From Brasilonema bromeliae SPC951 (GTDB taxonomy: Bacteria > Cyanobacteriota > Cyanobacteriia > Cyanobacteriales > Nostocaceae): a stretch of 32,737 nucleotides of DNA. Positions 12,858 to 32,602 of this stretch are shown here, piece by piece. Under the pieces are notes generated by a model. It was given only the letters and a program-made list of their open reading frames with translations. It was not told the origin of the DNA and did no database searches. Each line of letters starts with the position of its first letter. Position 1 is the stretch's first letter. The translations under genes and the position numbers were made by a program. Location: assembly GCF_012912135.1 (NCBI RefSeq), contig NZ_QMEB01000037.1, positions 239-32,975 on the forward strand, read 5' to 3'.

Positions 12858-14813
12858 TTAAGAGCTAACCGTTGGTAGATTGACAGTAAAAGTCGTGCCA
12901 ACACCAACCACACTTTCCACGGTGATTTCACCGCCATGTAGATCTACGAGAGTTTTAACAATCGATAGACCCAATCCAGTTCCTGGTATATTGTCAATAT
13001 TGCTGCCACGATAAAATGGCTCGAATATTTGTTGTTGATCCACTACTGGAATACCAATACCTGAATCTTCAATTTGAAAAACGACTTGATTGTTTTGACA
13101 GTAAAGTCTAAAAGTCACCGTGCTACTAGTAGGTGAATACTTGATAGCATTCGAGAGTAAATTAGTTAATATATGCTGTAGCAGTTTTGGATCTAAATAA
13201 CCAGTAGAGCAGTTACCTTGGCTGACAAAGTTGATAGCTTTTTGGTTACCGCCTGCTATCTGTACCTGTGCTAGGATATCTGTGCAAAACCTCTCCAGGT
13301 TGAGTTGTCTTGGCTGACACTCCAATCTTGCAGATTCTGCCTGACCATACAATAGAATTTCGTCTAATAATTCACTAATTTGCTGAACAGCAACTGTAAT
13401 CAAATCCAGATACGAACGATTTTTTTCTTCAGTCCATTGGTGAATATGACGTTTGAGTAAATCAGCAGAGAATGAGACAATGTTGAGCGGAGTGCGGAAT
13501 TGATGGCAAAGCATAGAAACAAAACGTTCTCTGAGTTCGCTCAGTCGCTTTGCATGCTCAAGAGCTTGATGAAGCTCCGATTCTGCCTGCTTATAATCTG
13601 TAATATCAATGGCTGTCAGTAATTCGACTGGCTTTCTTGCGAAATCCAGCATTCCATCCAGTACTCCTACTGTACAGGCTAGCCAGCGCTCCACACCATT
13701 TTTTGTTCTAATCTGCATCTCCTGATATTCACTGTAGCCGGCTCCATTCTGCTTGTGAACCTGCCTAAGCTTTTTGCTTGTAATAAGTCGGTCTATATTA
13801 AAGTTATTGAACAATTCTTTTTTTGGATAGCCAGTGAGTACCTCTGCTGCAGAATTGGCATAGCAAATGCGACTGTCGCAAATTAGGAAAATACTAGCTT
13901 CTGTAGTTTCTGCCAAAGTACGAAATCTGGCTTCATTGAGCCTAAGTGCTTCTTCTGTTTTTCTGGACTCAGTAACGTCCCATATACTCCATACTCTACC
14001 GATAATTTTGTCTCCAAGCCGTTGTGGCTCAGAGTAATGTGCAAAGACTCTCCCATCCTTCAATTCCACCAAGTCATAGCTCTGTTTATCCGATTGACTA
14101 GGCATTTCCCAAACAGCCTGACGAAAAATCTCTGGATATTTAACTTGGTTCTCAAAAAAGCCTTTTGCTCGGTGAGATTTTTTAGACAGACTAACCGAGT
14201 TTGGGAATTGCCACATCTCCAGAAATTTCTGATTGTAGCAAAGAATTTCTCCTTCAAAATTCACTGCAACTATGCCATTTGCAGTGGATTCTAACGTCGA
14301 GCGAAGTAGGGAAAGAGATGTTTCTAGTTCTGTTTGTGTTCTTTGATATTCAATAACTTCTTGCTCGAACTCTTCTTTTGGATCAGAGGTTCTGTCAATA
14401 TACTGTTGTACGCTCAAGCCTACTAATTCATCACTACTATCACGAGCAAAGGCACAGCCAAATTCTTTGCCTTGGTACTCTATATAAGTAAGATTCATTT
14501 CTACTAGAAAGACTCGACCTGTTCTTGTTTGATATCTAAATTTAAAGGTGAGGGAACCTTTTTCCTTGAGTGCTATCCATTTGTCTGACCAATTGTGTGC
14601 CGAAAAGTCTACATCTATATCTTGCAGTGTCATCGAGAGTAGTTCCTCACGGGAATACTCACTCATACGGCACATGGCATCATTCACGTAGAGAATTTGT
14701 GCGTTTAATCCCACACTGAAAGCAGCATCCGCAACCTGGTTAATAAGAAATTGTGCTAGCTTCAATTCCTCTTCCGGCTGTAGCACCGATTGAGAACTAG
14801 TATCAAATAGCAT
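12858..14813 (-). CDS. Triple-PAS sensor histidine kinase of the scytonemin locus (Npun_F1277-like)
   Basis: Soluble sensor kinase of 651 residues, no membrane segments. Three PAS domains lie at about 25-140, 165-280 and 290-410. Then HisKA with H-box MLCHQFRTPLN (H437; Gln replaces the usual Glu after the His), N-box NLLSNAIKYSP, G1 EDSGIGIP and G2 GTGLGLSIVKT. ATG at 14813 with GGTGA five bases upstream is better than the TTG at 14825. The gene heads the leftward operon that includes the AraC-type regulator and is divergent from scyA, as in N. punctiforme. By position it should relay the light/UVA or redox cue for sunscreen production. No chromophore-binding Cys of LOV type is obvious in the PAS domains, so the sensing mechanism cannot be read from sequence. 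Confidence 0.93.
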   Translation of the reverse strand: MLFDTSSQSVLQPEEELKLAQFLINQVADAAFSVGLNAQILYVNDAMCRMSEYSREELLSMTLQDIDVDFSAHNWSDKWIALKEKGSLTFKFRYQTRTGRVFLVEMNLTYIEYQGKEFGCAFARDSSDELVGLSVQQYIDRTSDPKEEFEQEVIEYQRTQTELETSLSLLRSTLESTANGIVAVNFEGEILCYNQKFLEMWQFPNSVSLSKKSHRAKGFFENQVKYPEIFRQAVWEMPSQSDKQSYDLVELKDGRVFAHYSEPQRLGDKIIGRVWSIWDVTESRKTEEALRLNEARFRTLAETTEASIFLICDSRICYANSAAEVLTGYPKKELFNNFNIDRLITSKKLRQVHKQNGAGYSEYQEMQIRTKNGVERWLACTVGVLDGMLDFARKPVELLTAIDITDYKQAESELHQALEHAKRLSELRERFVSMLCHQFRTPLNIVSFSADLLKRHIHQWTEEKNRSYLDLITVAVQQISELLDEILLYGQAESARLECQPRQLNLERFCTDILAQVQIAGGNQKAINFVSQGNCSTGYLDPKLLQHILTNLLSNAIKYSPTSSTVTFRLYCQNNQVVFQIEDSGIGIPVVDQQQIFEPFYRGSNIDNIPGTGLGLSIVKTLVDLHGGEITVESVVGVGTTFTVNLPTVSS

Positions 14814-16055
14814 AATATTCACCAAAACTCATCACCCTCTACTGACCTGACAAAAAAAGTATAAATTAGCACTGTAGCGTTTTTGGGACTTGTTATCAAA
14901 ATTTCTGAAATTTGGTGTTACGTTTTATCTGTCGCCTAACTTTAACTTATGAAATCTATAAGTATCTTAATATAACTTAATGTAAAAGTCAAAAAAATTC
15001 ATTTTTATCACCCTGAAGCACGATAGCTGACAGTACCGCTGCTTAAACGCTCTGTTAAATGACAGTGGAAAAATCAAATACAGAAAACATTCAAGTATAA
15101 ATCTTAGCCTTTAACAACGATGAGCAGAATATTTCCTTTTGAACATTTTTACTAGTTTTACCTCGTATAAGTTTAAGCACTCATATCAGCTTCTTAGTTG
15201 CAAAATGAATAACTGTATTACTACTGTGTACTTTTCTAGAATATAGTGACTAAAAACACGCAATACAGTTAACTTACTTAATTTGAGTAAAGAGCAGACA
15301 AATTTATAGATTTTCATGGCTGAATTGTTTCTAGTTAACCTAATTTCTTTAATTTACTCTTCTATGAATTCAACTACAAAATATTTTACAAGATCATCTG
15401 TCAAAAGAAATACCCTAATCCTGGCAAAATATGTATAGGCTAATACTTATCTATCTTGAGATTGATTATAGTAGAACCGAAAGAAGTGTTTTTGATAAGC
15501 AAACTTCTACTTAAAGGGCGTTGTGCTGCAACAGCACTAGAATTTATTCCACTTTTCAAGCAGAATCAGGCAAAACATTAAAATTTTATTAAAAATACGA
15601 TGAACGCTATTTTTTGTGCTTATGTTCACTGGTTGTCCTTAGTTTTTCTTAGGTAACTCTACTTTCAAGTCATAATTAAGACATGTTAAAAAAGTAACTG
15701 AATGACCGATGTAAAGTACCAAAAGGTAGAGAAAAGTTGTTCAAAGAGTCGTACATATCATATTTAGTACAAACAAAAAATCTGACAACTCAATCAAAAG
15801 ATTTTTCATTGCAGTAAAGTATCTAGCTTTTGTAGTCTTGTTTCCATAAGCACAGCCTCAATTGTTTAACTTCTTCGCAACAAGTTTTTTTACTGACGAA
15901 AAAGCGATCACTCGCCTTTCCCAGTGTTCGTCAAACTGGGTCGTGAAAATGTAGAAAAAATGGTGACATAAGGGATACTTAAGGCTGTGTGTGCGAGTGC
16001 AGCCTGAGAAATATAACTGGTAGCCTCTCCAATAATCAGGGAATATGTAGACGCA
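14814..16055. promoter_or_regulatory. Long divergent control region between scytonemin regulators and scyA
   Basis: A 1,242-bp AT-rich region with no credible gene on either strand. It must hold the regulator-operon promoter (left) and the scyA promoter (right). Visible structure: a GTGCTG-CAA-CAGCAC hairpin at 15523-15537 and a set of overlapping hairpins at 15895-16004 just before scyA. The scyA ribosome site is weak (AGGGA, about 13 bases before the ATG). I cannot place -35/-10 boxes or the regulator's binding site with confidence. Confidence 0.7.
15895..16004 (+). promoter_or_regulatory. Potential structured scyA 5-prime leader
   Basis: Two mutually exclusive pairings are visible: CCCAGT (15920-15925) with ACTGGG (15935-15940), and GACGAA (15895-15900) with TTCGTC (15927-15932), which uses the loop of the first hairpin. 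A further stem, GGCTG (15983-15987) with CAGCC (16000-16004), lies 52 bases before the scyA ATG. This could be an attenuator-like leader if the transcript starts upstream of 15895, which is not known. Confidence 0.35.
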
Positions 16056-17927
16056 ATGAGCCAAAACTATACTCAGACAAACTCTCTAGTCGGCACTCAG
16101 CCATACGACGTGTACCAACCAACTGACTCTTCCAAAGACCAGACAAATGGTAGTTCCAATGGTCACTCAAATGGTGCAGCCGTTGCACAAAAGCGATCGC
16201 CAACTGTAGCAGATGCGATCGCGAATATGATGGAAGATTTGGGAGTCAGCTGCGCCTTTGGCGTCAATGGAGGTGCGATGGCTGGTCTTTGGGGCTCGCT
16301 ATCGAATAGCCTCTTACAAGTAATGAACTGCCGTCATGAAGCCGGAGCTGCTTTTGCAGCAGCTGAAGCGTACTTCGCGACTGGTCGTCCCACCGTAGTT
16401 TTTACAACCGCTGGACCAGGTATAACCAACGCTCTGACTGGGTTATTTGCTGCTCGGGGTGAGGGTGCAAAAGTGATTTTGCTGTCAGCTTGCACCTCCT
16501 CACCACAGCGCGGACGGTGGGCAATACAGGAAACCAGCAGCCACACTCTGCCAACTGAGGGAATTTTTACCTCAGGAACGCTGTTTAACTATGCTACCAC
16601 TGTGGAGAGTGGTGCACAACTCCCACAAATTTTTCGTAAACTGGCTCTGGGTTTGTCCCAACCAGGAGCCTTTGTCGCCCATTTGAGCATTCCCACTGCT
16701 GTGCAAACAAGTCCGCTTGATAGAATGCCATTGTTCCAAGGAATGGATTGTTCTTTGGTAGTGCCACATACTGAAGCAATTGTTAAATGTACACAGTTGC
16801 TATCAGAAGGACCGTTTGCCATTTGGGTTGGTTTTGGTGCCCGTGGCGCAGCAGAAGAAATTCTCCAACTCGCCGAGAGAACCGGGGCAGCAGTTATATG
16901 TTCACCCCGTGGTAAAGGTATCTTTCCCGAAGATCATCCTCAATTTGTTGGGGTGACAGGCTTGGGAGGTCATGGTTCCGTCATGACCTATATGCAACAG
17001 CAAACACCTTTACGAACACTTGTGCTGGGAACGCGCCTTAGCGAACCAACTTCCTTCTGGAATGAAGCATTGGTTCCCCCAGGAGGCTTCGTGCATGTCG
17101 ATATCGATCCAACAGTGCCAGGAGTTGCATATCCAGAAGCGGAAACCTTCGCTATCCAATCAGACATCAAAGCATTTTTGCAAGCGCTGTTGCAACATGA
17201 TGAGCATCTCGCCAGTGCATCCGTAACAGCTTTATCGCTCCCTCGTCCTGAAGGTCAGACAATTCAACCAGGTTCAGACTCTCCAGTCAGACCAGAGGTG
17301 TTGATGGAAGCTATTCAAAAGGTGATCATCGATGGCACTGATGCCATAGTCATGGCGGAGTGTGGTAACTCGTTCCTTTGGTCAACACATTTACTGCGAT
17401 TTGCAAACGCAAATCGTTACCGAATCAGCACCGGAGTTGGGGCTATGGGTCATGCTGCTGCGGGAGTTATCGGAGCAGCTGCTGCACGCAATGGCAAAGC
17501 AGTCGCCATCGTTGGGGATGGGGCAATGCTGATGAATAATGAAATCAGCACAGCTGTGAAATACGAAATTCCTGCCGTCTGGATTGTCCTCAACGATGCT
17601 CGTTACAACATGAGCCACCAGGGTATGGAAATGTTGGGACTCAAAGGTGCAGATGCATCAATTCCGCAAGCAGATTTTGCAGCGATTGCTCACGCTATGG
17701 GAGCCGAAGGAATCCGCATCAACAAAGAAATGGATCTTTTCTCAGCGTTAGAGCAAGCAATGGTAGCCACGGGTCCGATCGTTATCGATGTCGTGATTAA
17801 CCCAGATAGACGCGCACCTTCCAAAGGACGCAACGCCGGTCTGGCATCACAAGGAGTCAAGTCAACTCCGGCTCAAAAGACTGAATTGCACGTGTCATTT
17901 CCACAAGTATCATTTCCAAATGCCTAA
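16056..17927 (+). CDS. scyA: Scytonemin biosynthesis ThDP-dependent enzyme ScyA
   Basis: Acetolactate-synthase homologue that, in scytonemin synthesis, couples indole-3-pyruvate with p-hydroxyphenylpyruvate in a thiamin-diphosphate-dependent acyloin reaction. The 623 residues start with about 45 low-complexity Asn/Ser/Gly-rich residues. The PYR domain follows with the catalytic Glu in CRHEAGAAFAAAEAYF (E95), then the central domain (LVLGTRLSEPTSFWN). The PP domain has the ThDP/Mg motif GDGAMLMNNE (487-496) closing at N513-D514. The Asn/Ser-rich N-terminus may be a flexible extension. First gene of the scy operon. The next gene follows either by an 8-base overlap or after 73 bases, depending on its start. 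Synteny with scyB and scyC makes this assignment much safer than homology to acetolactate synthase alone. Confidence 0.97.
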   Translation: MSQNYTQTNSLVGTQPYDVYQPTDSSKDQTNGSSNGHSNGAAVAQKRSPTVADAIANMMEDLGVSCAFGVNGGAMAGLWGSLSNSLLQVMNCRHEAGAAFAAAEAYFATGRPTVVFTTAGPGITNALTGLFAARGEGAKVILLSACTSSPQRGRWAIQETSSHTLPTEGIFTSGTLFNYATTVESGAQLPQIFRKLALGLSQPGAFVAHLSIPTAVQTSPLDRMPLFQGMDCSLVVPHTEAIVKCTQLLSEGPFAIWVGFGARGAAEEILQLAERTGAAVICSPRGKGIFPEDHPQFVGVTGLGGHGSVMTYMQQQTPLRTLVLGTRLSEPTSFWNEALVPPGGFVHVDIDPTVPGVAYPEAETFAIQSDIKAFLQALLQHDEHLASASVTALSLPRPEGQTIQPGSDSPVRPEVLMEAIQKVIIDGTDAIVMAECGNSFLWSTHLLRFANANRYRISTGVGAMGHAAAGVIGAAAARNGKAVAIVGDGAMLMNNEISTAVKYEIPAVWIVLNDARYNMSHQGMEMLGLKGADASIPQADFAAIAHAMGAEGIRINKEMDLFSALEQAMVATGPIVIDVVINPDRRAPSKGRNAGLASQGVKSTPAQKTELHVSFPQVSFPNA

Positions 17928-18000
17928 TCAATTTGTAGTAAGCGCAAACGGCGTTTACTACAAACACATAGGTGATATATCGGTGAGCGAGGAGATAGTG

Positions 18001-19059
18001 GTGAACCTTTTTGAAACTGTTACAGAGATGGGTCATGAGCAGATTCTTTTCTGCCATGGAAAAGACCCAGATATTAAGGCAATCATTGCCATCCATGACA
18101 CGAGTCTGGGACCCGCAATGGGGGCGACACGATTGTGGCCTTATGCCAGTGAGGCTGCTGCGTTAAAAGACGCTCTTCGTCTCAGTCGTGGTATGACTTA
18201 CAAAGCTGCTTGTGCTAATATTCCAGTTGGTGGAGGCAAAGCAGTTATTATTGCTAATCCTGAAAATAAGACAGAAGACCTATTTAGAGCCTACGGACGT
18301 TTTGTCGAAAGTCTTAAAGGACGATTTATCACAGGTCAAGATGTGAATTTGACCCCGGAAGATGTCAGAACAATCAGCAAAGAAACCCAATATGTTGTAG
18401 GGGTAGAAGAGCGCTCAGGCGGACCAGCTCCTGTGACCGCATGGGGAGTTTTTCTAGGACTCAAGGCTGCTGTTGAATTTCGTTTACAAACCGAAAACCT
18501 CAAAGGGTTGAGGGTTGCAGTTCAAGGTTTGGGAAATGTCGGTCAAAATCTTTGCCGACACCTGCACGAACATGGAGCAAAACTATTTGTTACCGATATA
18601 AGTCCAGATAAAACAGAGCAAGTTAAACGTCTTTTTGGTGCCACAGTTGTGGAGCCAGATGAAATTTACTCTCTGGATGTCGATGTACTTTCCCCTTGTG
18701 CTCTAGGCGGAATTCTCAATAGTGAAACGATTCCTCGCATTAAAGCTTCAGTTATTGCTGGTGCTGCCAACAATCAGCTAGGAGTAGAAGTACTCCACGG
18801 TCAAATGCTTGCAGCACAAGAAATTCTTTATGCTCCAGATTACGTTATTAATGCAGGTGGGCTAATCAACGTTTACAACGAAATGATTGGCTACAACGAA
18901 CAAAGAGCTTTCAAGCAAGTGAATAACATCTACGACACGCTGCTTGAAATTTTTGATAGAGCGCAAAAGCAGGACATCACTACCAACGATGCTTCTAAGC
19001 AGTTGGCAGAAGACAGAATCCTCAAAGCCAGACATCTCAAGACCTTAGCTGTGGTCTAA
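18001..19059 (+). CDS. scyB: Scytonemin biosynthesis leucine-dehydrogenase-like enzyme ScyB
   Basis: NAD-dependent amino acid dehydrogenase that oxidatively deaminates tryptophan to indole-3-pyruvate, the substrate of ScyA. I place the start at GTG 18001 (352 residues), because AGGAG sits six bases upstream, the protein then begins NLFETVTEMGHEQ like leucine dehydrogenases, and the catalytic lysine of NIPVGGGKAVI falls at K80, the family's usual number. An in-frame ATG at 17920, overlapping the scyA stop by 8 bases, would add 27 residues but has no ribosome site. Other marks: LGPAMGATRLWPY (substrate pocket), TGQDVNLTPEDV, and the Rossmann motif GLGNVGQN from about residue 176. Second gene of the scy operon; only 11 bases separate it from scyC. 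Confidence 0.96.
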   Translation: MNLFETVTEMGHEQILFCHGKDPDIKAIIAIHDTSLGPAMGATRLWPYASEAAALKDALRLSRGMTYKAACANIPVGGGKAVIIANPENKTEDLFRAYGRFVESLKGRFITGQDVNLTPEDVRTISKETQYVVGVEERSGGPAPVTAWGVFLGLKAAVEFRLQTENLKGLRVAVQGLGNVGQNLCRHLHEHGAKLFVTDISPDKTEQVKRLFGATVVEPDEIYSLDVDVLSPCALGGILNSETIPRIKASVIAGAANNQLGVEVLHGQMLAAQEILYAPDYVINAGGLINVYNEMIGYNEQRAFKQVNNIYDTLLEIFDRAQKQDITTNDASKQLAEDRILKARHLKTLAVV

Positions 19060-19070
19060 AGGAGTGACAA

Positions 19071-20027
19071 ATGGTAACTGAAAGAAATACATTTGGAACA
19101 TCTGCCTACATCGAAACGACTCCAGAGAGTGCCTTTGAATACCTTGCCGAGCTAAAAAACTTAGGCGAGTGGACTCTCTATAGCCGCATGGAAGAGCAAA
19201 TCGACGAAGATACCTGGCTCGGAACTGCCTCTGGCTACCAGACAAAGCTCTATTATCATGTCGAAAGACTGGATCATCCCAATTTTTACGGCATTGAGTG
19301 GCACTGCGGGTTAGAGTATCAGAAATATTATCAGGTCTACCCTGTCCTCCTTTTTCCTGCTGACTACGTTGAGCCGGGAACCGATGAAAAGGGTGTGTAC
19401 TTACACTGGGTCAGCTTTGTTGATCCCAAGCGGCGCAGTCCCTTGATTATGGAGGGAATTCACACGGTACACACTTCCGAGTGTCGTTCTCTTAAAGGTA
19501 ATTTGGAACGCAAAGCTGGTCTTAAGACCGCAGCAAAAGGACGTTACTACGTTGACACCGACACCATCTATGTTAATGCCCCAATAGAAATGGGGATTGA
19601 GTATTTGTCAGACCTCAAAAACATGGATGATTGGGCACACCTACTGCGAGCCGATGGCGAAATTTCTGGTCAGTCTGGAGAGTTTCGCGATGAATATGGT
19701 CAAAAGGTGAAAGTCACTCAGCGCCTGCAAGCTGTTAACAAATCGTACTTGCTGGAGCACGAGTTCTTTTATCCAGACTACGGATTTTATCAGCGCTCTC
19801 CGGTGCTGCTAATCCCAACCTCCCATGCTTTCCGGGATCCAGAAGCTCCTGGTTTCATCCAGCATCGAATCACCTTCTGGAAAACAGGTGAGCAACTACC
19901 TCACGGTAAACTCCAAATCGAAGACTTTGGCTCTGAGAGCTTGAATATCAAGCGTATCTTGGAAGGCAAAGCTGGCAACCTTAATACATTAGCTCAAGGT
20001 TTGAGCTATATGCCGCAGGCTAAGTAG
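19071..20027 (+). CDS. scyC: Scytonemin cyclase ScyC
   Basis: Catalyses ring closure of the ScyA product to the cyclopenta[b]indole keto acid, the monomer skeleton of scytonemin. The 318-residue soluble protein has no signal peptide. It is an internal duplication: residues about 10-155 (ETTPESAFEYLAELKNLGEW, later YPVLLFPADY and LERKAG) repeat at about 163-310 (NAPIEMGIEYLSDLKNMDDW, SPVLLIPTSH, LEGKAG). The pattern looks like two SRPBCC/START-type cyclase folds in tandem, which is my inference. The ATG has AGGAGTG seven bases upstream, overlapping the scyB stop. The downstream gap of 165 bp holds two inverted repeats, so scyABC may form a unit partly separable from scyD-F. Confidence 0.96.
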   Translation: MVTERNTFGTSAYIETTPESAFEYLAELKNLGEWTLYSRMEEQIDEDTWLGTASGYQTKLYYHVERLDHPNFYGIEWHCGLEYQKYYQVYPVLLFPADYVEPGTDEKGVYLHWVSFVDPKRRSPLIMEGIHTVHTSECRSLKGNLERKAGLKTAAKGRYYVDTDTIYVNAPIEMGIEYLSDLKNMDDWAHLLRADGEISGQSGEFRDEYGQKVKVTQRLQAVNKSYLLEHEFFYPDYGFYQRSPVLLIPTSHAFRDPEAPGFIQHRITFWKTGEQLPHGKLQIEDFGSESLNIKRILEGKAGNLNTLAQGLSYMPQAK

Positions 20028-20033
20028 TGACTT

Positions 20034-20079
20034 GTTAGTAGTTAGTGGTTAATAAAACAACTAATTACTAACAACTAAC
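20034..20079. repeat. Imperfect inverted repeat after scyC, heptamer-like
   Basis: GTTAGTAGTTAGT (20034-20046) faces ACTAACAACTAAC (20067-20079), one mismatch in 13, with a 20-base loop. The arms are built of GTTAGT/CTAACAA units like the STRR heptamers elsewhere in the window. No T-run follows, so a terminator role is weak. Confidence 0.6.
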
Positions 20080-20126
20080 AACTAATAACAAATAAATAAC
20101 TTTATATATTCAGGGTGAAAACGCTG

Positions 20127-20149
20127 CCATTGCTTGTTATGAGCAATGG
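20127..20149 (+). promoter_or_regulatory. Perfect hairpin upstream of scyD
   Basis: CCATTGCT (20127-20134) and AGCAATGG (20142-20149) form an 8-bp stem with a 7-base loop, 43 bases before the scyD ATG. No T-run follows. It could be an RNA processing or stability element in the scy transcript. Confidence 0.45.
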
Positions 20150-20192
20150 GAGTTCTACACATAAAATCTAAAGCCGACCTCTGTTGTGACAC

Positions 20193-21314
20193 ATGAAACT
20201 GGAACAACTTACTATTACGTCTTTCACGGTACTTGCCGATGGTCTTGACAATCCGAAAGGTCTAAGCTTTGGTCCTGACGGTAGTCTCTATATTACAGAA
20301 GCAGGGACGGGGGGAGATGGAGCTAGCGTTCCATCACCTAGTGGTCAAGGTTCTTTACTTTTTGGCACAACTGGTGCTATTTTAAGAGTAAATAATGCTA
20401 CAATAGAACGTATAGTCACTGGACTCCCTTCCTTGGCATTTCCAGATGGTACTGGAGCCGCTGGTCCTCACGATATAAAATTTGATACTACAGGCAAGCC
20501 TTATGTTCTCGTTGGGTACGCTGCAAATCCTGCCTTACGCGACAGCACATTTGGTGAGACTGACTTAGGAAAAATTATCACTCCCGATTTCCAGACGAAT
20601 TCGTGGACTACTGTTGCCGATATAGCCAACTATGAACTGACTCATAATCCTGACGGAGGCGATGTCGTCAGTAATCCCCTGGCTTTTTTAATAGATGGCG
20701 ACAAGATTGTTGTTGTTGATCCGGGTGCAAACGATTTGCTGAGTGTAGGCACCGATGGAAGTCATTTGGAGGCGATCGCTGTACTTCCCCAACAGCCGGT
20801 TATTAATCCAATTTTTCCTGGTTTTAACTCGCAAAATTTTGACCGGGGACACGTACCACCTCCCAGCGCTTATCGTAATGCGACACCATCGCAAATAACG
20901 ATTCAATCTGTACCTACAGGAATTGCCAAAGGTCCAGATGGTGCTTATTACATCAGTACATTCACTGGTTTTCCTTTCCCAGAAGGTGGAGCAAAAATCT
21001 ACCGAGTGGATGCTGATGGTCAACTAACAGTTTATGCTGATGGCTTTACACAACTGATTGACTTGGCTTTCGATGCGCAAGGCAACTTGTATGCATTGCA
21101 ACACATGAATTCCTCTGGCTGGAAAGGAAATCTGGATGGAAGTCTGATCAAAATAGCACAGGATGGCACTCGCACAACTATTCTCAGTGGTGATGGATTA
21201 CAAGCACCAAGTGCACTGACTATTGGTCCTGATGATGCTCTTTATGTGATCAACCGAGGCGGTCTGCCAGGAAAAGGGCAAGTCATAAGAATTGAGAATC
21301 CAAGGTCTGTTTGA
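20193..21314 (+). CDS. scyD: ScyD/ScyE family protein (ScyD)
   Basis: A 373-residue beta-propeller-like protein of the scytonemin cluster; its exact step is unknown. Repeated NHL/SMP-30-like blades are visible: NPKGLSFGPDGSLYITEAG at about 19-37, GPHDIKFDTTGKPYVLVGY, SVPTGIAKGPDGAYYIST and SALTIGPDDALYVINRGG. It is clearly paralogous to the next gene (shared PTGI, ALQHMN and WKG motifs). Unlike that gene it has no signal peptide and no C-terminal anchor. An in-frame TGA at 20187-20189, directly before the ATG, rules out a hidden N-terminal extension. It ends cleanly at RIENPRSV. No good Shine-Dalgarno is present, so translation may depend on upstream coupling or leader structure. The order (third-to-last of scyA-F) fits N. 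punctiforme. Confidence 0.9.
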   Translation: MKLEQLTITSFTVLADGLDNPKGLSFGPDGSLYITEAGTGGDGASVPSPSGQGSLLFGTTGAILRVNNATIERIVTGLPSLAFPDGTGAAGPHDIKFDTTGKPYVLVGYAANPALRDSTFGETDLGKIITPDFQTNSWTTVADIANYELTHNPDGGDVVSNPLAFLIDGDKIVVVDPGANDLLSVGTDGSHLEAIAVLPQQPVINPIFPGFNSQNFDRGHVPPPSAYRNATPSQITIQSVPTGIAKGPDGAYYISTFTGFPFPEGGAKIYRVDADGQLTVYADGFTQLIDLAFDAQGNLYALQHMNSSGWKGNLDGSLIKIAQDGTRTTILSGDGLQAPSALTIGPDDALYVINRGGLPGKGQVIRIENPRSV

Positions 21315-21527
21315 TGAGTAAAAGACAATAGTCTGTGCTCAACACAAGAACGAGATTCCTGCAATTTTAACAACAAGTTTCAAGCGGGTGCAATACCAGT
21401 TCCTCTGAACTTGGAGGGACTGTCGCGGTAGATGCTTGATTTCCACATCCTAGTCACTGCGACTCTTTATCTCTAACACCGTACAACATTCCACAACTAC
21501 CAACACTCGATCTCAATCTAAATAACT

Positions 21528-22892
21528 ATGAAATTCAAGTCATTTGCTCTTACAGTTTTCTCCGTTTGTGCCGCTGTTGCTTGTGGAACCCAAGCTGCAC
21601 GAGCAGCATCGCTGTCAGTAGTTGCTGACCAGCTTAACAACCCACGGAATCTTGACTTTGCTCCTGACGGCAGTATTTATCTGACAGAGAGTGGTGCCGG
21701 AGGTGACGGAAAAGATGGAAGATGTATCGCATCACCTAGCGCGCAATACATCCCTTTATGTGCTGGGAGTAATGGTACCCTGGTCAAAATTGCTAAGGAC
21801 GGTACAAAAACAAATGTAATTTCAAACCTTACATCCATAGCGTTAGTTCCCTCTGGCGAACAAGCTGCCGGTCCTGCTGACTTCAAATTTGATTCCAAAG
21901 GCAACGCTTATCTTCTAACTGGCTTGGCTGGCAATCCGAACCAACGCGATACCGTCTTGCAAAGCCCCGATCTCGGAAAATTATACAAAGTAGACTTAAA
22001 AACCGGTTCGCTGACAACTCTTGCCGATTTTGCAAACTACGAAGCTAAATATAATCCTGATGGCACTGATTTGATTAGCAACCCCTATGCTTTTGCAATT
22101 AAGGGTGATAATGCTTACGTCGTTGATGGGGGTGGAAACTCGATATATTCCGTGGCACTGGATGGCAGCGGTATTAAGAATGTAGCAGCCATACCTCAGA
22201 AACGCATATCACCAGATCAACTGCAATTCCCAACTCTTCCTGAGGGAACAACAGACCCAACAGGAGGCGCAGCACCACCTCCAGGTTATACAATTGCTCC
22301 CAATGGTCTTCCAGTATCAAACCAATCAGTGCCAACAGGTATCGTAGTTGCCCCGGATGGAAGTTTGACTTTAAGTGAATACACTTATTTTCCTTATCCA
22401 GAAAATGAAGCACGTATCTTTAAAGTTGACCCCGATACTTTGCAAACACAAGTCCTTGCTGATGGCTTTACGCAGTTGACTGGCGTGACATACGACTCTG
22501 ATGGCAATTTGTATGCCTTGCAACACATCAATCAGTCAGAATGGAAGGGCATTCAACAGGGTGGTGTGATCACAGGTGATATCAGTGGTTCTATCATCAA
22601 AATAGCCAAGGATGGAACTCGCCAAACTATTTGGAGTGGTAATGGACTAGAGGCAGCTTCTGGTTTATTTTTCGGTCCTGATGGCGATTTATATACTTCA
22701 AACCGTACCAGACTCGTAGCTGGGGAACGAGGAGGACAGTTGATCAAGATTGATCCTAGATCTTCTGGTGGCGCGACAAAAGTTCCTGAACCCGCTTCTG
22801 TGATTGCTGTATTAGCAACTGCAGCTTTAGGCGCAAAAGCAATGAAGCGCAAGCGCCAAGAACAGGTGTTGGCTAAGGTAGAAACTATCTAA
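21528..22892 (+). CDS. scyE: ScyD/ScyE family protein with PEP-CTERM anchor (ScyE)
   Basis: Exported 454-residue relative of ScyD. A signal peptide spans residues 1 to about 27 (MKFKSFALTVFSVCAAVACG, Ala-rich cleavage region ending in ARA). Propeller-type repeats follow: NPRNLDFAPDGSIYLTESG, GPADFKFDSKGNAYLLTG, SVPTGIVVAPDGSLTLSEY and GLFFGPDGDLYTSNR. The C-terminus is a PEP-CTERM sorting signal: KVPEPASVIAVLATAALG, then a basic cluster (KAMKRKRQ). This predicts translocation and handling by an exosortase at the membrane/outer surface, fitting a role in extracytoplasmic oxidation or dimerisation of the scytonemin monomer. Function is unproven. The gap of 213 bp from scyD shows no terminator. 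No clear ribosome site precedes the ATG. Confidence 0.9.
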   Translation: MKFKSFALTVFSVCAAVACGTQAARAASLSVVADQLNNPRNLDFAPDGSIYLTESGAGGDGKDGRCIASPSAQYIPLCAGSNGTLVKIAKDGTKTNVISNLTSIALVPSGEQAAGPADFKFDSKGNAYLLTGLAGNPNQRDTVLQSPDLGKLYKVDLKTGSLTTLADFANYEAKYNPDGTDLISNPYAFAIKGDNAYVVDGGGNSIYSVALDGSGIKNVAAIPQKRISPDQLQFPTLPEGTTDPTGGAAPPPGYTIAPNGLPVSNQSVPTGIVVAPDGSLTLSEYTYFPYPENEARIFKVDPDTLQTQVLADGFTQLTGVTYDSDGNLYALQHINQSEWKGIQQGGVITGDISGSIIKIAKDGTRQTIWSGNGLEAASGLFFGPDGDLYTSNRTRLVAGERGGQLIKIDPRSSGGATKVPEPASVIAVLATAALGAKAMKRKRQEQVLAKVETI

Positions 22893-22959
22893 TTCCTTGT
22901 TTGTTTCTTGGGCTATACCAAAGAATGCTCAAGAAATAAGCTGCTACCTCAAATACAAA

Positions 22960-22980
22960 GCTGTCTTTCAAAAAGACAGC
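22960..22980 (+). promoter_or_regulatory. Perfect 9-bp hairpin between scyE and scyF
   Basis: GCTGTCTTT (22960-22968), loop CAA, AAAGACAGC (22972-22980). No T-run follows. It lies 67 bases after the scyE stop and pairs tightly, so it may protect the 3-prime end of upstream RNA or act as a processing site. Confidence 0.55.
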
Positions 22981-22993
22981 AACACAAAATTGA

Positions 22994-23018
22994 AGTTCCC
23001 AGACTAGGTCCGGGAACT
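22994..23018 (+). promoter_or_regulatory. Second hairpin upstream of scyF
   Basis: AGTTCCC (22994-23000) pairs with GGGAACT (23012-23018). Inside, GAC (23002-23004) pairs with GTC (23008-23010), leaving an A/C mismatch and a TAG loop. It lies 14 bases beyond the previous hairpin and 46 bases before the scyF ATG. Confidence 0.5.
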
Positions 23019-23064
23019 ACATAAACCTAGGTAAAAGTATAACTCATAACACAGAAGATTCACT

Positions 23065-24252
23065 ATGGGATTAGTCAAGAATTTGTCACTTGCCTTAATC
23101 GGTGCCAGCTTTCTGGTAGCGGGTGCAGCAGTCCAAGCGATGGCGTTAACCTTACAGTACGATCGCTCTATAGGTGAGCCTGGTTTCGGTCCTGGGCAAC
23201 TGTTTGTTCCCCAAGGCATAGCGGTAGATAGCCAAGGGAATACCCTCGTAGCTAACGGACGCGGTGTTAACCCGGTGACTGGTGCTCCTGACTACAGCCT
23301 CGGTAACAAAATTGAAAAATTTAGTCCTAGCGGTCAGTATATTGGAGCAATTGGCACAGGCGGCACAGGACCCGGACAGTTTGACGAGCCAACAACTGTA
23401 GACTTTAATCCAGTAACAGGGGATCTGTATGCAGGTGATGTTTACAACAACCGCATCAATCAATTCGATTCTCAGGGTAACTTTATTAGATCCTTTGGAA
23501 ATGGATCATTTACCCCTCTAGTAGAGGGTAGATTGTTCTTTGGACCATCTGGTGTGACATTTGACAAAGCTGGCAACGTGTACGTCGGTGATTTTAACGG
23601 CGAAAGGATTTTTAAATTCACACCAGACGGACAGCAAATTGGTGTCATTGGTGGCACCAATGGCACTGCACTTGGGGAGTTCCAAGGTGTAGCAGGTGTA
23701 AGAATTTCCCCAGTTAGTGGAAATATCTATATAGCTGACCAGTTTAACAACCGCGTTCAAGTACTCGATCCAAATGGTAAACCTCTGTTCACATTTGGTT
23801 CAGCAGGTAGCGGACCTGGACAGCTTCTTCAGCCAATTGGCATCGAAGTGGACGACCAAGAGAATGTCTATGTAGCTGATTCTATCAATAGCCGTGTTCA
23901 GGTATTCGATAAAAACGGTAAGTTCCTGACGAACTACGGTCAACCAGCCCTGGATGCATCAGGTAAGCCAGTCCCGCCTCCAGGATTAACTGACGGTCCC
24001 TTTGGCAATCCCCTTGACCTCACTCCAGGCAGATTTAACTGGACAGGTGGTACAGCCCTTAAAGATGGCAAGCTGTATGTTAGCGACTTCTTCCAAGGTC
24101 GCGTACAAGTGTTAAATGTCAACAGAAGTGGCAGCACTTCAGTACCTGAATCTAGCTCATTATTAGGTCTAGCAGTACTGGGAGTTGGCGCGACTGCTAC
24201 ACTGCGCAAGAAGCAGCAAAAATCACCGATTCTCGAAAAGACCTCTGTTTAA
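23065..24252 (+). CDS. scyF: NHL-repeat protein with PEP-CTERM anchor (ScyF)
   Basis: Exported six-bladed NHL-type beta-propeller of 395 residues, last gene of the scytonemin cluster. A signal peptide spans about 1-27 (MGLVKNLSLALIGASFLVAG, then an Ala-rich cleavage site). Blades repeat as GPGQLFVPQGIAVDSQGN, PGQFDEPTTVDFNP, GPSGVTFDKAGNVYVGDFN, VAGVRISPVSGNIYIADQFN, LLQPIGIEVDDQENVYVADS and LYVSDFFQGRVQV, with NNR/NSR turns typical of NHL repeats. A Pro/Gly loop interrupts the last two blades (residues about 295-320). The C-terminus is a PEP-CTERM signal (SVPESSSLLGLAVLGVG, then RKKQQK). The precise biochemical role is unknown; an export, scaffold or late-pathway function is plausible. ScyF is not closely related to ScyD/ScyE beyond the propeller fold. 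Confidence 0.9.
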   Translation: MGLVKNLSLALIGASFLVAGAAVQAMALTLQYDRSIGEPGFGPGQLFVPQGIAVDSQGNTLVANGRGVNPVTGAPDYSLGNKIEKFSPSGQYIGAIGTGGTGPGQFDEPTTVDFNPVTGDLYAGDVYNNRINQFDSQGNFIRSFGNGSFTPLVEGRLFFGPSGVTFDKAGNVYVGDFNGERIFKFTPDGQQIGVIGGTNGTALGEFQGVAGVRISPVSGNIYIADQFNNRVQVLDPNGKPLFTFGSAGSGPGQLLQPIGIEVDDQENVYVADSINSRVQVFDKNGKFLTNYGQPALDASGKPVPPPGLTDGPFGNPLDLTPGRFNWTGGTALKDGKLYVSDFFQGRVQVLNVNRSGSTSVPESSSLLGLAVLGVGATATLRKKQQKSPILEKTSV

Positions 24253-32197: not shown

Positions 32198-32602
32198 TCA
32201 AGTTCTTTGTTGAGCAATATAGTTTTTGACCGCCTCTGTGGATATGTTTCCTGCCGTGCTAACAAAATAGCTAGGAGTCCACAAAGTTGGTAATTTCAAT
32301 AACTCTGGAAATTCTTTTCGCAAGAAATGTGATGCCCGACCTTTAATCTTGTTCATGACAGCCGCTGGGCAATCAGTTACTTTGACGTTGACAAATAGAT
32401 GAACGTGGTCAGGCATAATTTCCATCGCTACAATCTTCCACCGATTCTCGTTGCACACATCGCAGATGATTTCTTGTAATCTGTCGGCAACAGCATTGAC
32501 CAAAACTTTTTTACGGCGCTTAGGGATAAAGACAAAGTGATAGTTTAACAAAGCTATTGAGTTTCCCTCATGCCTATATTCGTCTGGAGTAAATTTCGCC
32601 AT
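32198..32602 (-). CDS. tnpA: IS200/IS605 family transposase TnpA (Y1 HUH)
   Basis: Single-strand DNA transposase of 134 residues, full length for the family. It has the HUH motif IMPDHVHLFV (H66, H68) and the catalytic tyrosine in VKNYIAQQ (Y128), followed by Gln at the expected helix position. Acts as a dimer, cutting and joining single-stranded ends at subterminal hairpins with a 5-prime phosphotyrosine link. The frame is intact, so the element may still be active. It is divergent from tnpB across 83 bp. Confidence 0.95.
   Translation of the reverse strand: MAKFTPDEYRHEGNSIALLNYHFVFIPKRRKKVLVNAVADRLQEIICDVCNENRWKIVAMEIMPDHVHLFVNVKVTDCPAAVMNKIKGRASHFLRKEFPELLKLPTLWTPSYFVSTAGNISTEAVKNYIAQQRT

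What the first reader, a model, noticed from the sequence alone, without database searches (positions are those of the whole stretch)
20193..24252. Compartment mismatch: leaderless ScyD beside PEP-CTERM-anchored ScyE and ScyF
ScyD and ScyE are clear paralogues, yet ScyE and ScyF have signal peptides and C-terminal PEP-CTERM signals while ScyD has neither. An in-frame stop directly before the ScyD start excludes a missed leader. The late pathway may use one cytoplasmic and two exported propellers, perhaps handing the monomer across the membrane, and exosortase could be needed for sunscreen deposition.
Basis: partly seen in the sequence, partly recalled or inferred. Interest (0 to 1): 0.65.

Follow-up and report, generated by a model that had tools for sequence, protein, structure and literature searches.

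The report
Sunscreen-pathway propeller moved into cytoplasm
In one large branch of cyanobacteria, a protein of the scytonemin sunscreen operon has lost both its export signals and the disulfide of its exported relatives, so it has probably moved into the cytoplasm, and it is still kept intact by selection although it has been called a pseudogene.

Summary
Window ScyD (20193-21314) has no signal peptide and no PEP-CTERM tail; its neighbours ScyE and ScyF have both. This is not general to ScyD: the Nostoc, Anabaena, Fortiea and Trichocoleus ScyDs read here have a leader and a PEP-CTERM-like tail. The leaderless form is one clade of 30 orthologues (support 100/100; Scytonema, Brasilonema, Rhizonema, Hassallia, Calothrix, Rivularia and kin) nested inside exported ScyDs.

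It most simply arose by a 54-base in-frame deletion that removed the signal-peptide core and cleavage site but kept the start and n-region. An independent mark agrees: a cysteine pair is filled at 182 of 184 positions in exported relatives but 8 of 60 in leaderless ScyD. Exported domains have no other cysteine (0 of 92 rows); leaderless ones have 53. Selection is purifying (median dN/dS about 0.20), against the published value near 1 and 'pseudogene' label.

So a compartment switch is well supported by sequence. Handing the monomer across the membrane is untested; in N. punctiforme that needs Ebo proteins. The exosortase idea was confirmed in print in 2025 (N. punctiforme). I found no fractionation of leaderless ScyD, and its cytoplasmic role is inferred.

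The parts
16056..17927 (+). scyA (ThDP enzyme), first gene of the scy operon core
   Evidence: NF035923 TPP_ScyA 1165.1 bits, cut-off 1020
17920..19059 (+). scyB (tryptophan dehydrogenase)
   Evidence: NF035922 683.6 bits, cut-off 600
19071..20027 (+). scyC (cyclase/decarboxylase)
   Evidence: NF035924 586.1 bits, cut-off 400
20187..20189 (+). in-frame TGA two codons before the scyD ATG; closes the frame against a longer N-terminus
   Evidence: sequence
20193..21314 (+). scyD, leaderless and tailless propeller protein, probably cytoplasmic
   Evidence: ORF; NF033206 406.8 bits; clade of 30; AF2 pLDDT 89.2
20193..20218 (+). retained start and n-region of the former signal peptide (ATG...ACTATTAC)
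   Evidence: MKLEQLTIT against the SP-bearing ScyD consensus MKLKQLTIT; register and shuffle controls
20218..20219 (+). inferred junction of the 54-base in-frame deletion (placement uncertain by a few bases)
   Evidence: start offset -11 against -29; DNA of L038 and others
20325..20327 (+). Ser45 codon, where exported relatives have the first conserved Cys
   Evidence: alignment column 84
20358..20360 (+). Leu56 codon, where exported relatives have the second conserved Cys
   Evidence: alignment column 96
21528..22892 (+). scyE, exported paralogue
   Evidence: NF033206 386.8 bits; AF2 pLDDT 81.4
21528..21608 (+). ScyE signal peptide (MKFKSFALTVFSVCAAVACGTQAARAA; cleavage site estimated by eye)
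   Evidence: hydrophobic core 2.5 on the Kyte-Doolittle scale
21723..21725 (+). ScyE Cys66 codon, first Cys of the conserved pair
21759..21761 (+). ScyE Cys78 codon, second Cys of the pair, apparently opposite Cys66 in a predicted hairpin (strands 66-68 and 76-88)
22782..22856 (+). ScyE PEP-CTERM signal (VPEPAS, hydrophobic helix, KRKRQ)
   Evidence: TIGR02595 17.0 bits, cut-off 16, residues 419-443
23065..24252 (+). scyF, exported NHL-repeat propeller
   Evidence: NF035926 577.4 bits, cut-off 350
23065..23145 (+). ScyF signal peptide (read by eye; cleavage site estimated)
   Evidence: sequence MGLVKNLSLALIGASFLVAGAAVQAMA
24142..24216 (+). ScyF PEP-CTERM signal (VPESSS variant)
   Evidence: TIGR02595 19.9 bits, cut-off 16, residues 360-384

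Best explanation
ScyD of this lineage is an operon-encoded beta-propeller moved from the periplasm to the cytoplasm. Step 1 (shown by the tree): ScyD and ScyE are paralogues, and the other branches keep a leader. Step 2 (inferred from DNA): in one ancestor an in-frame deletion of about 54 bases cut out the signal-peptide core and cleavage site and left the start codon and n-region. Step 3 (shown as an outcome, order inferred): the PEP-CTERM tail was lost; Hassallia and Spirirestis keep a VPEPASAL remnant without a membrane helix. Step 4 (shown): the cross-hairpin cysteine pair decayed and lone cysteines appeared elsewhere, as expected of a protein folding in a reducing compartment. Step 5 (shown): the gene stayed under purifying selection in its place after scyC. 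Step 6 (inferred, weak): beside the cytoplasmic enzymes ScyA, ScyB and ScyC it most likely binds or acts on the ScyC product or scytonemin monomer before Ebo-dependent export, while ScyE does the periplasmic dimerisation.
For: Leaderless rows form one clade, 30 of 30, support 100/100, sister to SP-bearing Trichocoleus (97/85) and nested among SP-bearing ScyDs, with SP-bearing ScyE as outgroup (same clade). Residues before the domain: 11 in 23 of 30 leaderless rows, 29 in 24 of 33 SP-bearing ScyDs and in 48 of 60 ScyEs, so 18 residues or 54 bases are missing. In those 23 leaderless rows the first residues match the SP n-region: register 0 gives a mean of 6.22 of 11 identities, the next best register 2.26, and 6 of 20000 shuffles reach the observed n-region match. 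Cys pair: ScyE 118 of 118 positions, SP-ScyD 64 of 66, leaderless 8 of 60; other Cys in the domain: 0 in 92 exported rows, 53 in 30 leaderless rows, 23 of which have at least one. All 14 columns with such other Cys are filled by leaderless rows only and need 22 parsimony changes, in a clade that holds 3.30 of 10.88 tree length. Compartment controls: exported ScyF has no Cys in 62 of 65 cores; cytoplasmic ScyC has 1-6 in 78 rows and ScyB 3-6 in 33 (cores trimmed roughly). Selection: median dN/dS 0.203 for leaderless scyD (176 of 435 pairs with dS 0.05-1; largest 0.336), 0.193 for SP-bearing scyD (243 of 528), 0.257 for scyE (302 of 1711); 10 of 10 close leaderless pairs that I picked reject pN = pS, p from 4e-28 to 2.7e-4. 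The model folds well, and 41 columns are at least 93% the same residue in each of ScyE, SP-ScyD and leaderless ScyD.
Against: I found no experiment that places leaderless ScyD in any compartment. Deletion of scyD in N. punctiforme has no scytonemin phenotype (PMC4870267, passages), though that strain's ScyD is the exported kind. L016 is leaderless yet keeps both cysteines, L006 has the first one and L014 and L017-L020 the second, so the pair is not strictly tied to export. Loss of the pair needs only 2-3 changes within the clade, so the 30 rows are not 30 independent events. The n-region match varies: 2 to 7 of 8 residues, mean 5.09, and the 7 leaderless rows with other offsets were not in that test. 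The loss of the tail cannot be dated relative to the loss of the leader. Signal peptides were scored by hydrophobicity and start offset, not by SignalP, and rare start codons were not considered. Tails of exported ScyDs are themselves weak PEP-CTERMs: of three scanned, L038 scores 16.1, L026 15.0 (cut-off 16) and L030 gives no match. The cytoplasmic role in step 6 has no direct support.
Confidence: 0.85

Rival explanations
1. scyD is a pseudogene kept only by its place in the operon, and the loss of the leader, tail and cysteines is simple decay (the published view of scyD).
For: Published dN/dS 0.90-1.15 and no phenotype of the N. punctiforme deletion (PMC4870267, passages and section 12); repeated as 'characteristics of a pseudogene' in PMC6529634 (passages).
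Against: Each of the 39 loci gives one long unsplit ScyD frame, 29 of them leaderless; dN/dS is about 0.20, the same as in SP-bearing scyD and below scyE; 10 of 10 close pairs reject neutrality; the model folds with pLDDT 89.
Confidence: 0.05
2. Leaderless ScyD is still exported, by hitch-hiking on a partner or by a non-classical route.
For: Its operon partners ScyE and ScyF are exported in N. punctiforme; absence of a leader does not prove absence from the periplasm.
Against: The window's ScyE leader has no twin-arginine pair (sequence), ScyE of N. punctiforme was read as Sec-exported, and Sec does not carry folded partners (established knowledge). Lone cysteines appear only in the leaderless clade, which argues against an oxidising compartment.
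Confidence: 0.08
3. The leaderless form is ancestral, and Nostoc and Anabaena ScyDs later acquired both signals.
For: Leaderless rows are numerous in the collected set (30 of 63 ScyD rows).
Against: The clade is nested within SP-bearing ScyDs with SP-bearing ScyE as outgroup; leaderless N-termini carry the n-region of the signal peptide; two rows carry a PEP remnant; all leaderless rows but the window came, whose patterns favoured the window's own N-terminus, and in the scyC-based survey leaderless scyD is the minority (5 against 24).
Confidence: 0.02

Closest known systems
ScyD of Nostoc punctiforme (Npun_R1273) and scyC-linked Nostoc/Anabaena orthologues
   Same: Same operon place after scyC, same ScyD/ScyE-family propeller.
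   Different: Those have a signal peptide, a PEP-CTERM-like tail and (in the rows read here) the cysteine pair; in the window's clade these are lost or reduced to remnants.
ScyE (periplasmic scytonemin dimerisation protein)
   Same: Paralogue; the window pair is about 50% identical, with 41 columns conserved across all three groups.
   Different: ScyE is exported and essential in N. punctiforme (literature). Tyr290 of ScyE (59 of 59 rows) is Phe in 30 of 30 leaderless and 31 of 33 SP-bearing ScyDs.
Protein subcellular relocalization (neolocalization) of gene duplicates
   Same: A duplicate changes compartment through its targeting sequence and is retained (for example PMC4202327 and PMC2790464; search listing and abstract starts only).
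   Different: Most of the ten papers listed (of 24 found) concern eukaryotes; here it is a bacterial biosynthetic operon, with loss of two sorting signals and of a cysteine pair.
Six-bladed propeller lactonase/SMP-30-like proteins (PDB 2p4o, 8djf) and Cj1041c (22gv)
   Same: Fold: VIA-align Z 26.5-28.1, rmsd 2.2-2.8 over 253-263 residues.
   Different: 15-22% identity; no shared function is shown.

Membership tests
ScyD/ScyE family (NCBIfam NF033206) | Score above the curated cut-off of 80 bits | tested here: met
   406.8 bits, residues 12-367
ScyD orthologue group | Groups with ScyD rather than ScyE, directly after scyC | tested here: met
   Tree: ScyD side of 63 rows, SH-aLRT 94, midpoint root; scyC ends at 20027, scyD starts at 20193
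PEP-CTERM/exosortase substrates | N-terminal signal peptide | tested here: not met
   ScyD: 11 residues before the domain, in-frame stop upstream. ScyE and ScyF have hydrophobic leaders.
PEP-CTERM/exosortase substrates | C-terminal PEP motif, hydrophobic helix, basic end | tested here: not met
   ScyD tail after the domain is PRSV only; no TIGR02595 match reported at E up to 10, while ScyE 17.0 and ScyF 19.9 bits pass 16
PEP-CTERM/exosortase substrates | Exosortase encoded in the genome | tested here: met
   One exosortase match, C213:9299-10057, beside the cyanosortase B-associated protein, C213:8525-9202, in an assembly about 90% complete; relevant to ScyE and ScyF
Pseudogene | dN/dS near 1, broken frames | tested here: not met
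   Median 0.203; 10 of 10 close pairs reject neutrality; one unsplit ScyD frame in each of 39 loci
Protein subcellular relocalization of duplicates | Duplicate with changed targeting signals | tested here: met
Protein subcellular relocalization of duplicates | New location shown for the protein itself | not testable with these tools
   Only the indirect cysteine signature was available
SMP-30/gluconolactonase-like enzymes | Metal-site and catalytic residues | not tested
   Only overall fold compared; Pfam SGL for window ScyD 21.6 bits, under its cut-off of 26.3

The most novel reading that the evidence does not exclude
In the Scytonema-Calothrix-Rivularia lineage, ScyD is a working cytoplasmic scytonemin protein: a former periplasmic propeller redeployed by excision of its signal peptide to act on the ScyC product or the monomer before export, so these organisms run a different late pathway from N. 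punctiforme.
Probability: 0.4. Interest if true: 0.75.

Novelty: new variant of a known kind. Interest (0 to 1): 0.58.

Why it matters
The working model published in 2025 shows ScyD as an exported PEP-CTERM protein, and earlier papers call scyD a pseudogene; the model and the deletion result come from N. punctiforme. Here a whole clade has a leaderless ScyD that is under purifying selection and carries the cysteine signature of a cytoplasmic protein. That makes the old puzzle of why a seemingly useless scyD is kept directly testable, warns against carrying N. punctiforme's null phenotype over to Scytonema, Calothrix or Rivularia, and offers a natural experiment in how an exported propeller adapts to the cytoplasm. 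It may also bear on engineering scytonemin in other hosts.

Tried and rejected
Looked for a longer N-terminus in raw DNA of all 30 leaderless rows: L012, L013, L016 and L044 have earlier ATG/GTG/TTG codons, none leading into a hydrophobic stretch (at most 0.62 on the Kyte-Doolittle scale, against at least 1.78 in SP-bearing ScyDs); L023 has a hydrophobic open stretch (2.48) but no ATG/GTG/TTG in it. Suspected that Rhizonema had lost ScyE, because scyF follows scyD there; rejected, since whole-genome search finds ScyE-like frames elsewhere (G388, G390, G391; only a 63-residue piece at a contig end in G389). IQ-TREE codon models were run to get a maximum-likelihood omega, but no value could be read from the reports, so dN/dS rests on Nei-Gojobori counts. 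A PDB sequence search with the ScyD profile gave mainly designed Pizza propellers, with PknD, 2p4o and quinoprotein glucose dehydrogenases, no functional lead. No active site of ScyD was identified. The literature search on relocalization by leader loss was too loose to judge bacterial precedent. Whether leaderless ScyD goes with a ScyE subtype was looked at only by eye on the tree: ScyEs of leaderless taxa fall in the 34-row ScyE clade, but so do those of some SP-bearing taxa, so it is not diagnostic.

Rows dropped: six duplicate loci (L076, L077, L078, L087, L098, L100), judged by equal contig lengths and frame coordinates; one broken ScyE frame of L044 from tree and alignment, so ScyE counts are 60 and 59 later; L040 from the careful tree for its long branch, and only 5 of 59 ScyEs were used in that tree. 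Frames were taken stop to stop and kept at 200 bits or more, so split copies would drop out: G358 (L110) has a ScyD/E-like gene in two pieces, and the own genome a broken copy at C330. The hydrophobicity cut-offs (1.7 for the leader, 1.4 for the tail) and the loose PEP pattern were chosen after seeing the values; the leader gap is wide (leaderless at most 0.85, SP-bearing ScyD at least 1.78), but two of 60 ScyE tails fall under 1.4. scyC and scyF in the dN/dS count were untrimmed stop-to-stop frames from the leaderless loci only. The output was cut, so repeats its start-codon check.


Full report
WHAT IS THERE. The window carries a scytonemin core operon scyABCDEF (16056-24252, + strand), with the scytonemin sensor kinase on the opposite strand upstream (12858-14825); ScyA, ScyB, ScyC and ScyF match their own NCBIfam models, and ScyD and ScyE the shared ScyD/ScyE-family model, above cut-off. 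ScyD (20193-21314, 373 aa) starts 11 residues before its propeller domain and ends four residues after the domain boundary I used; an in-frame TGA lies two codons upstream of its ATG. ScyE (454 aa) and ScyF (395 aa) carry hydrophobic leaders and PEP-CTERM tails above the TIGR02595 cut-off.

IT IS A CLADE, NOT A STRAIN. I collected ScyD/ScyE-family frames from raw DNA: 39 loci found with ScyD peptide patterns in named genomes (biased towards the window's N-terminus, since MKLEQLTI was one pattern), 51 regions beside scyC in genomes of the same order (scyC was found in 52 of 388 genomes, own included), the window, and a second locus of its genome. After dropping six duplicates there were 63 ScyD and 60 ScyE frames. 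Thirty ScyDs are leaderless without a membrane-type tail, 32 have a leader and a hydrophobic tail with a PEP-like motif, and one (L040) has a leader only. The PEP-CTERM model itself is weak on exported ScyDs: of three scanned, L038 scores 16.1 bits, L026 15.0 (cut-off 16) and L030 gives no match. In the scyC-based survey, which does not select on scyD, the 52 genomes split into 5 leaderless scyD, 24 scyD with both signals, 9 in which a ScyE-type gene is the next Scy gene after scyC, 5 cut by contig or region ends, and 9 others. So the leaderless state is the minority state in that sample.

ORIGIN. In a careful tree of the domain only (62 ScyD, 5 ScyE), the 30 leaderless rows are one clade with 100/100 support, sister to Trichocoleus ScyD (97/85), inside SP-bearing ScyDs. 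The start lies 11 residues before the domain in 23 of 30 leaderless rows (others 10, 12 and 2) and 29 residues before it in 24 of 33 SP-bearing ScyDs: 18 residues, 54 bases. In those 23 rows the N-terminus (consensus MKLEQLTIT) resembles the n-region of the signal peptide (consensus MKLKQLTIT), in register 0 only (mean 6.22 of 11 identities; next best 2.26); single rows match at 2 to 7 of 8 positions. The DNA on both sides of the gap lines up: window ...ACTATTAC|GTCTTTC, L038 ...ACTATTAC[54 bases]ATCTTTT. The simplest history is one in-frame deletion of the leader's core and cleavage site. The tail is gone too; L018 and L020 keep a VPEPASAL remnant with no membrane helix.

COMPARTMENT SIGNATURE. 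Every ScyE domain (59 of 59) and 32 of 33 SP-bearing ScyD domains have exactly two cysteines, at the same two places (the exception, L117, has none); in the ScyE model these fall on strands 66-68 and 76-88, which look like a hairpin, so a disulfide is likely (inferred from DSSP, no distance was available). Leaderless ScyDs keep 8 of 60 of these cysteines: L016 both, L006 the first, L014 and L017-L020 the second. They have 53 other cysteines in 23 of 30 rows; exported relatives have none in 92 rows. Those 14 columns need 22 changes on the 67-row tree, all in leaderless rows, although the leaderless clade is 3.30 of 10.88 of tree length; if changes fell in proportion to length the chance would be about 4e-12 by my arithmetic (1e-11 if the stem branch is counted), taking parsimony changes as independent. 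Controls from the same operons behave as expected: exported ScyF cores have no cysteine in 62 of 65, cytoplasmic ScyC has 1-6 (78 rows) and ScyB 3-6 (33 rows). This is the strongest evidence, independent of the missing leader, that leaderless ScyD lives in a reducing compartment.

NOT A PSEUDOGENE. Ferreira and Garcia-Pichel reported dN/dS of 0.90-1.15 for scyD and suggested a pseudogene (PMC4870267; passages and section 12 read); a later paper repeats it (PMC6529634, passages). Here Nei-Gojobori medians over pairs with dS 0.05-1 are 0.203 (leaderless scyD, 176 of 435 pairs), 0.193 (SP-bearing scyD, 243 of 528), 0.257 (scyE, 302 of 1711), 0.113 (scyC, 88 of 435) and 0.282 (scyF, 93 of 406); the mean over all finite leaderless pairs with dS above 0.05 is 0.186. 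Ten close leaderless pairs, picked as separate twigs of the tree, all reject equality. Each of the 39 loci holds one long unsplit ScyD frame. I did not reanalyse that paper's alignment. Its strain list mixes Calothrix, Rivularia, Scytonema and Tolypothrix, whose relatives here are leaderless, with Nostoc, Anabaena, Nodularia and Lyngbya.

WHAT IT MAY DO. The ScyD model is a confident propeller (pLDDT 89.2, pTM 0.90), with solved look-alikes among lactonase/SMP-30-like, sugar-dehydrogenase, NHL and designed propellers (VIA-align Z about 26-28), which does not name a function. Forty-one columns are shared at 93% or more by ScyE, exported ScyD and leaderless ScyD; ScyE Tyr290 (59 of 59) is Phe in 30 of 30 leaderless and 31 of 33 SP-bearing ScyDs, so that change came before the move. 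In N. [quoted passage not shown] This genome encodes EboE and one cyanoexosortase with its partner, so the exported half of the pathway is presumably present. A cytoplasmic ScyD would sit with ScyA-C; binding or processing of the ScyC product before export is my preferred but weakly supported role.

RELATION TO PRINT. The exosortase question is answered for N. punctiforme: a crtB deletion makes no scytonemin and, unlike the scyE deletion, does not clearly accumulate monomer; that paper's model shows ScyD as exported (PMC12188702, passages). In the searches (open-licence PMC only), the listings and the passages I read do not describe a leaderless ScyD clade; PMC2726228 states that ScyD, ScyE and ScyF each have a signal peptide (passages). 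Sorrels et al. 2009 was not held, so I cannot exclude a remark there.

VERDICT. Observation confirmed; interpretation partly supported. It is a lineage-wide compartment switch of a paralogue by loss of both sorting signals, with matching cysteine evolution and continuing purifying selection. The location itself and the function remain to be shown at the bench.

Noticed in passing
L075:5324-7564 (own genome contig C330, about 32.3-34.6 kb): A second ScyD/ScyE-family locus outside the scy operon: an intact exported copy (leader, PEP-CTERM-like tail, two Cys) and a broken copy split over two frames, among sugar ABC-transporter-like genes.
   Followed up: partly
L012, L013, L014, L015: In three Rhizonema genomes and one uncultured Scytonema, no scyE lies between scyD and scyF; ScyE-like frames lie elsewhere in the genomes of L012, L014 and L015, and only a short piece was found in that of L013.
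   Followed up: partly
L030, L031, L033, L034, L035: Nostoc genomes carry an SP-bearing ScyD-like gene with no ScyB, ScyC, ScyE or ScyF frame detected in the fetched flanks.
   Followed up: no
tree: ScyE itself falls in two deep clades (25 and 34 rows) that cut across families, so ScyE may have been replaced or duplicated anciently.
   Followed up: no
L110 (G358): Besides an intact ScyE-type frame, a ScyD/E-like gene appears in two pieces before scyF.
   Followed up: no
L068 (G306): The scyC match is flagged with one TAG inside by the genome search, though its open frame is 323 aa.
   Followed up: no
window 32198-32602: IS200-like Y1 transposase gene near the window's right end.
   Followed up: no
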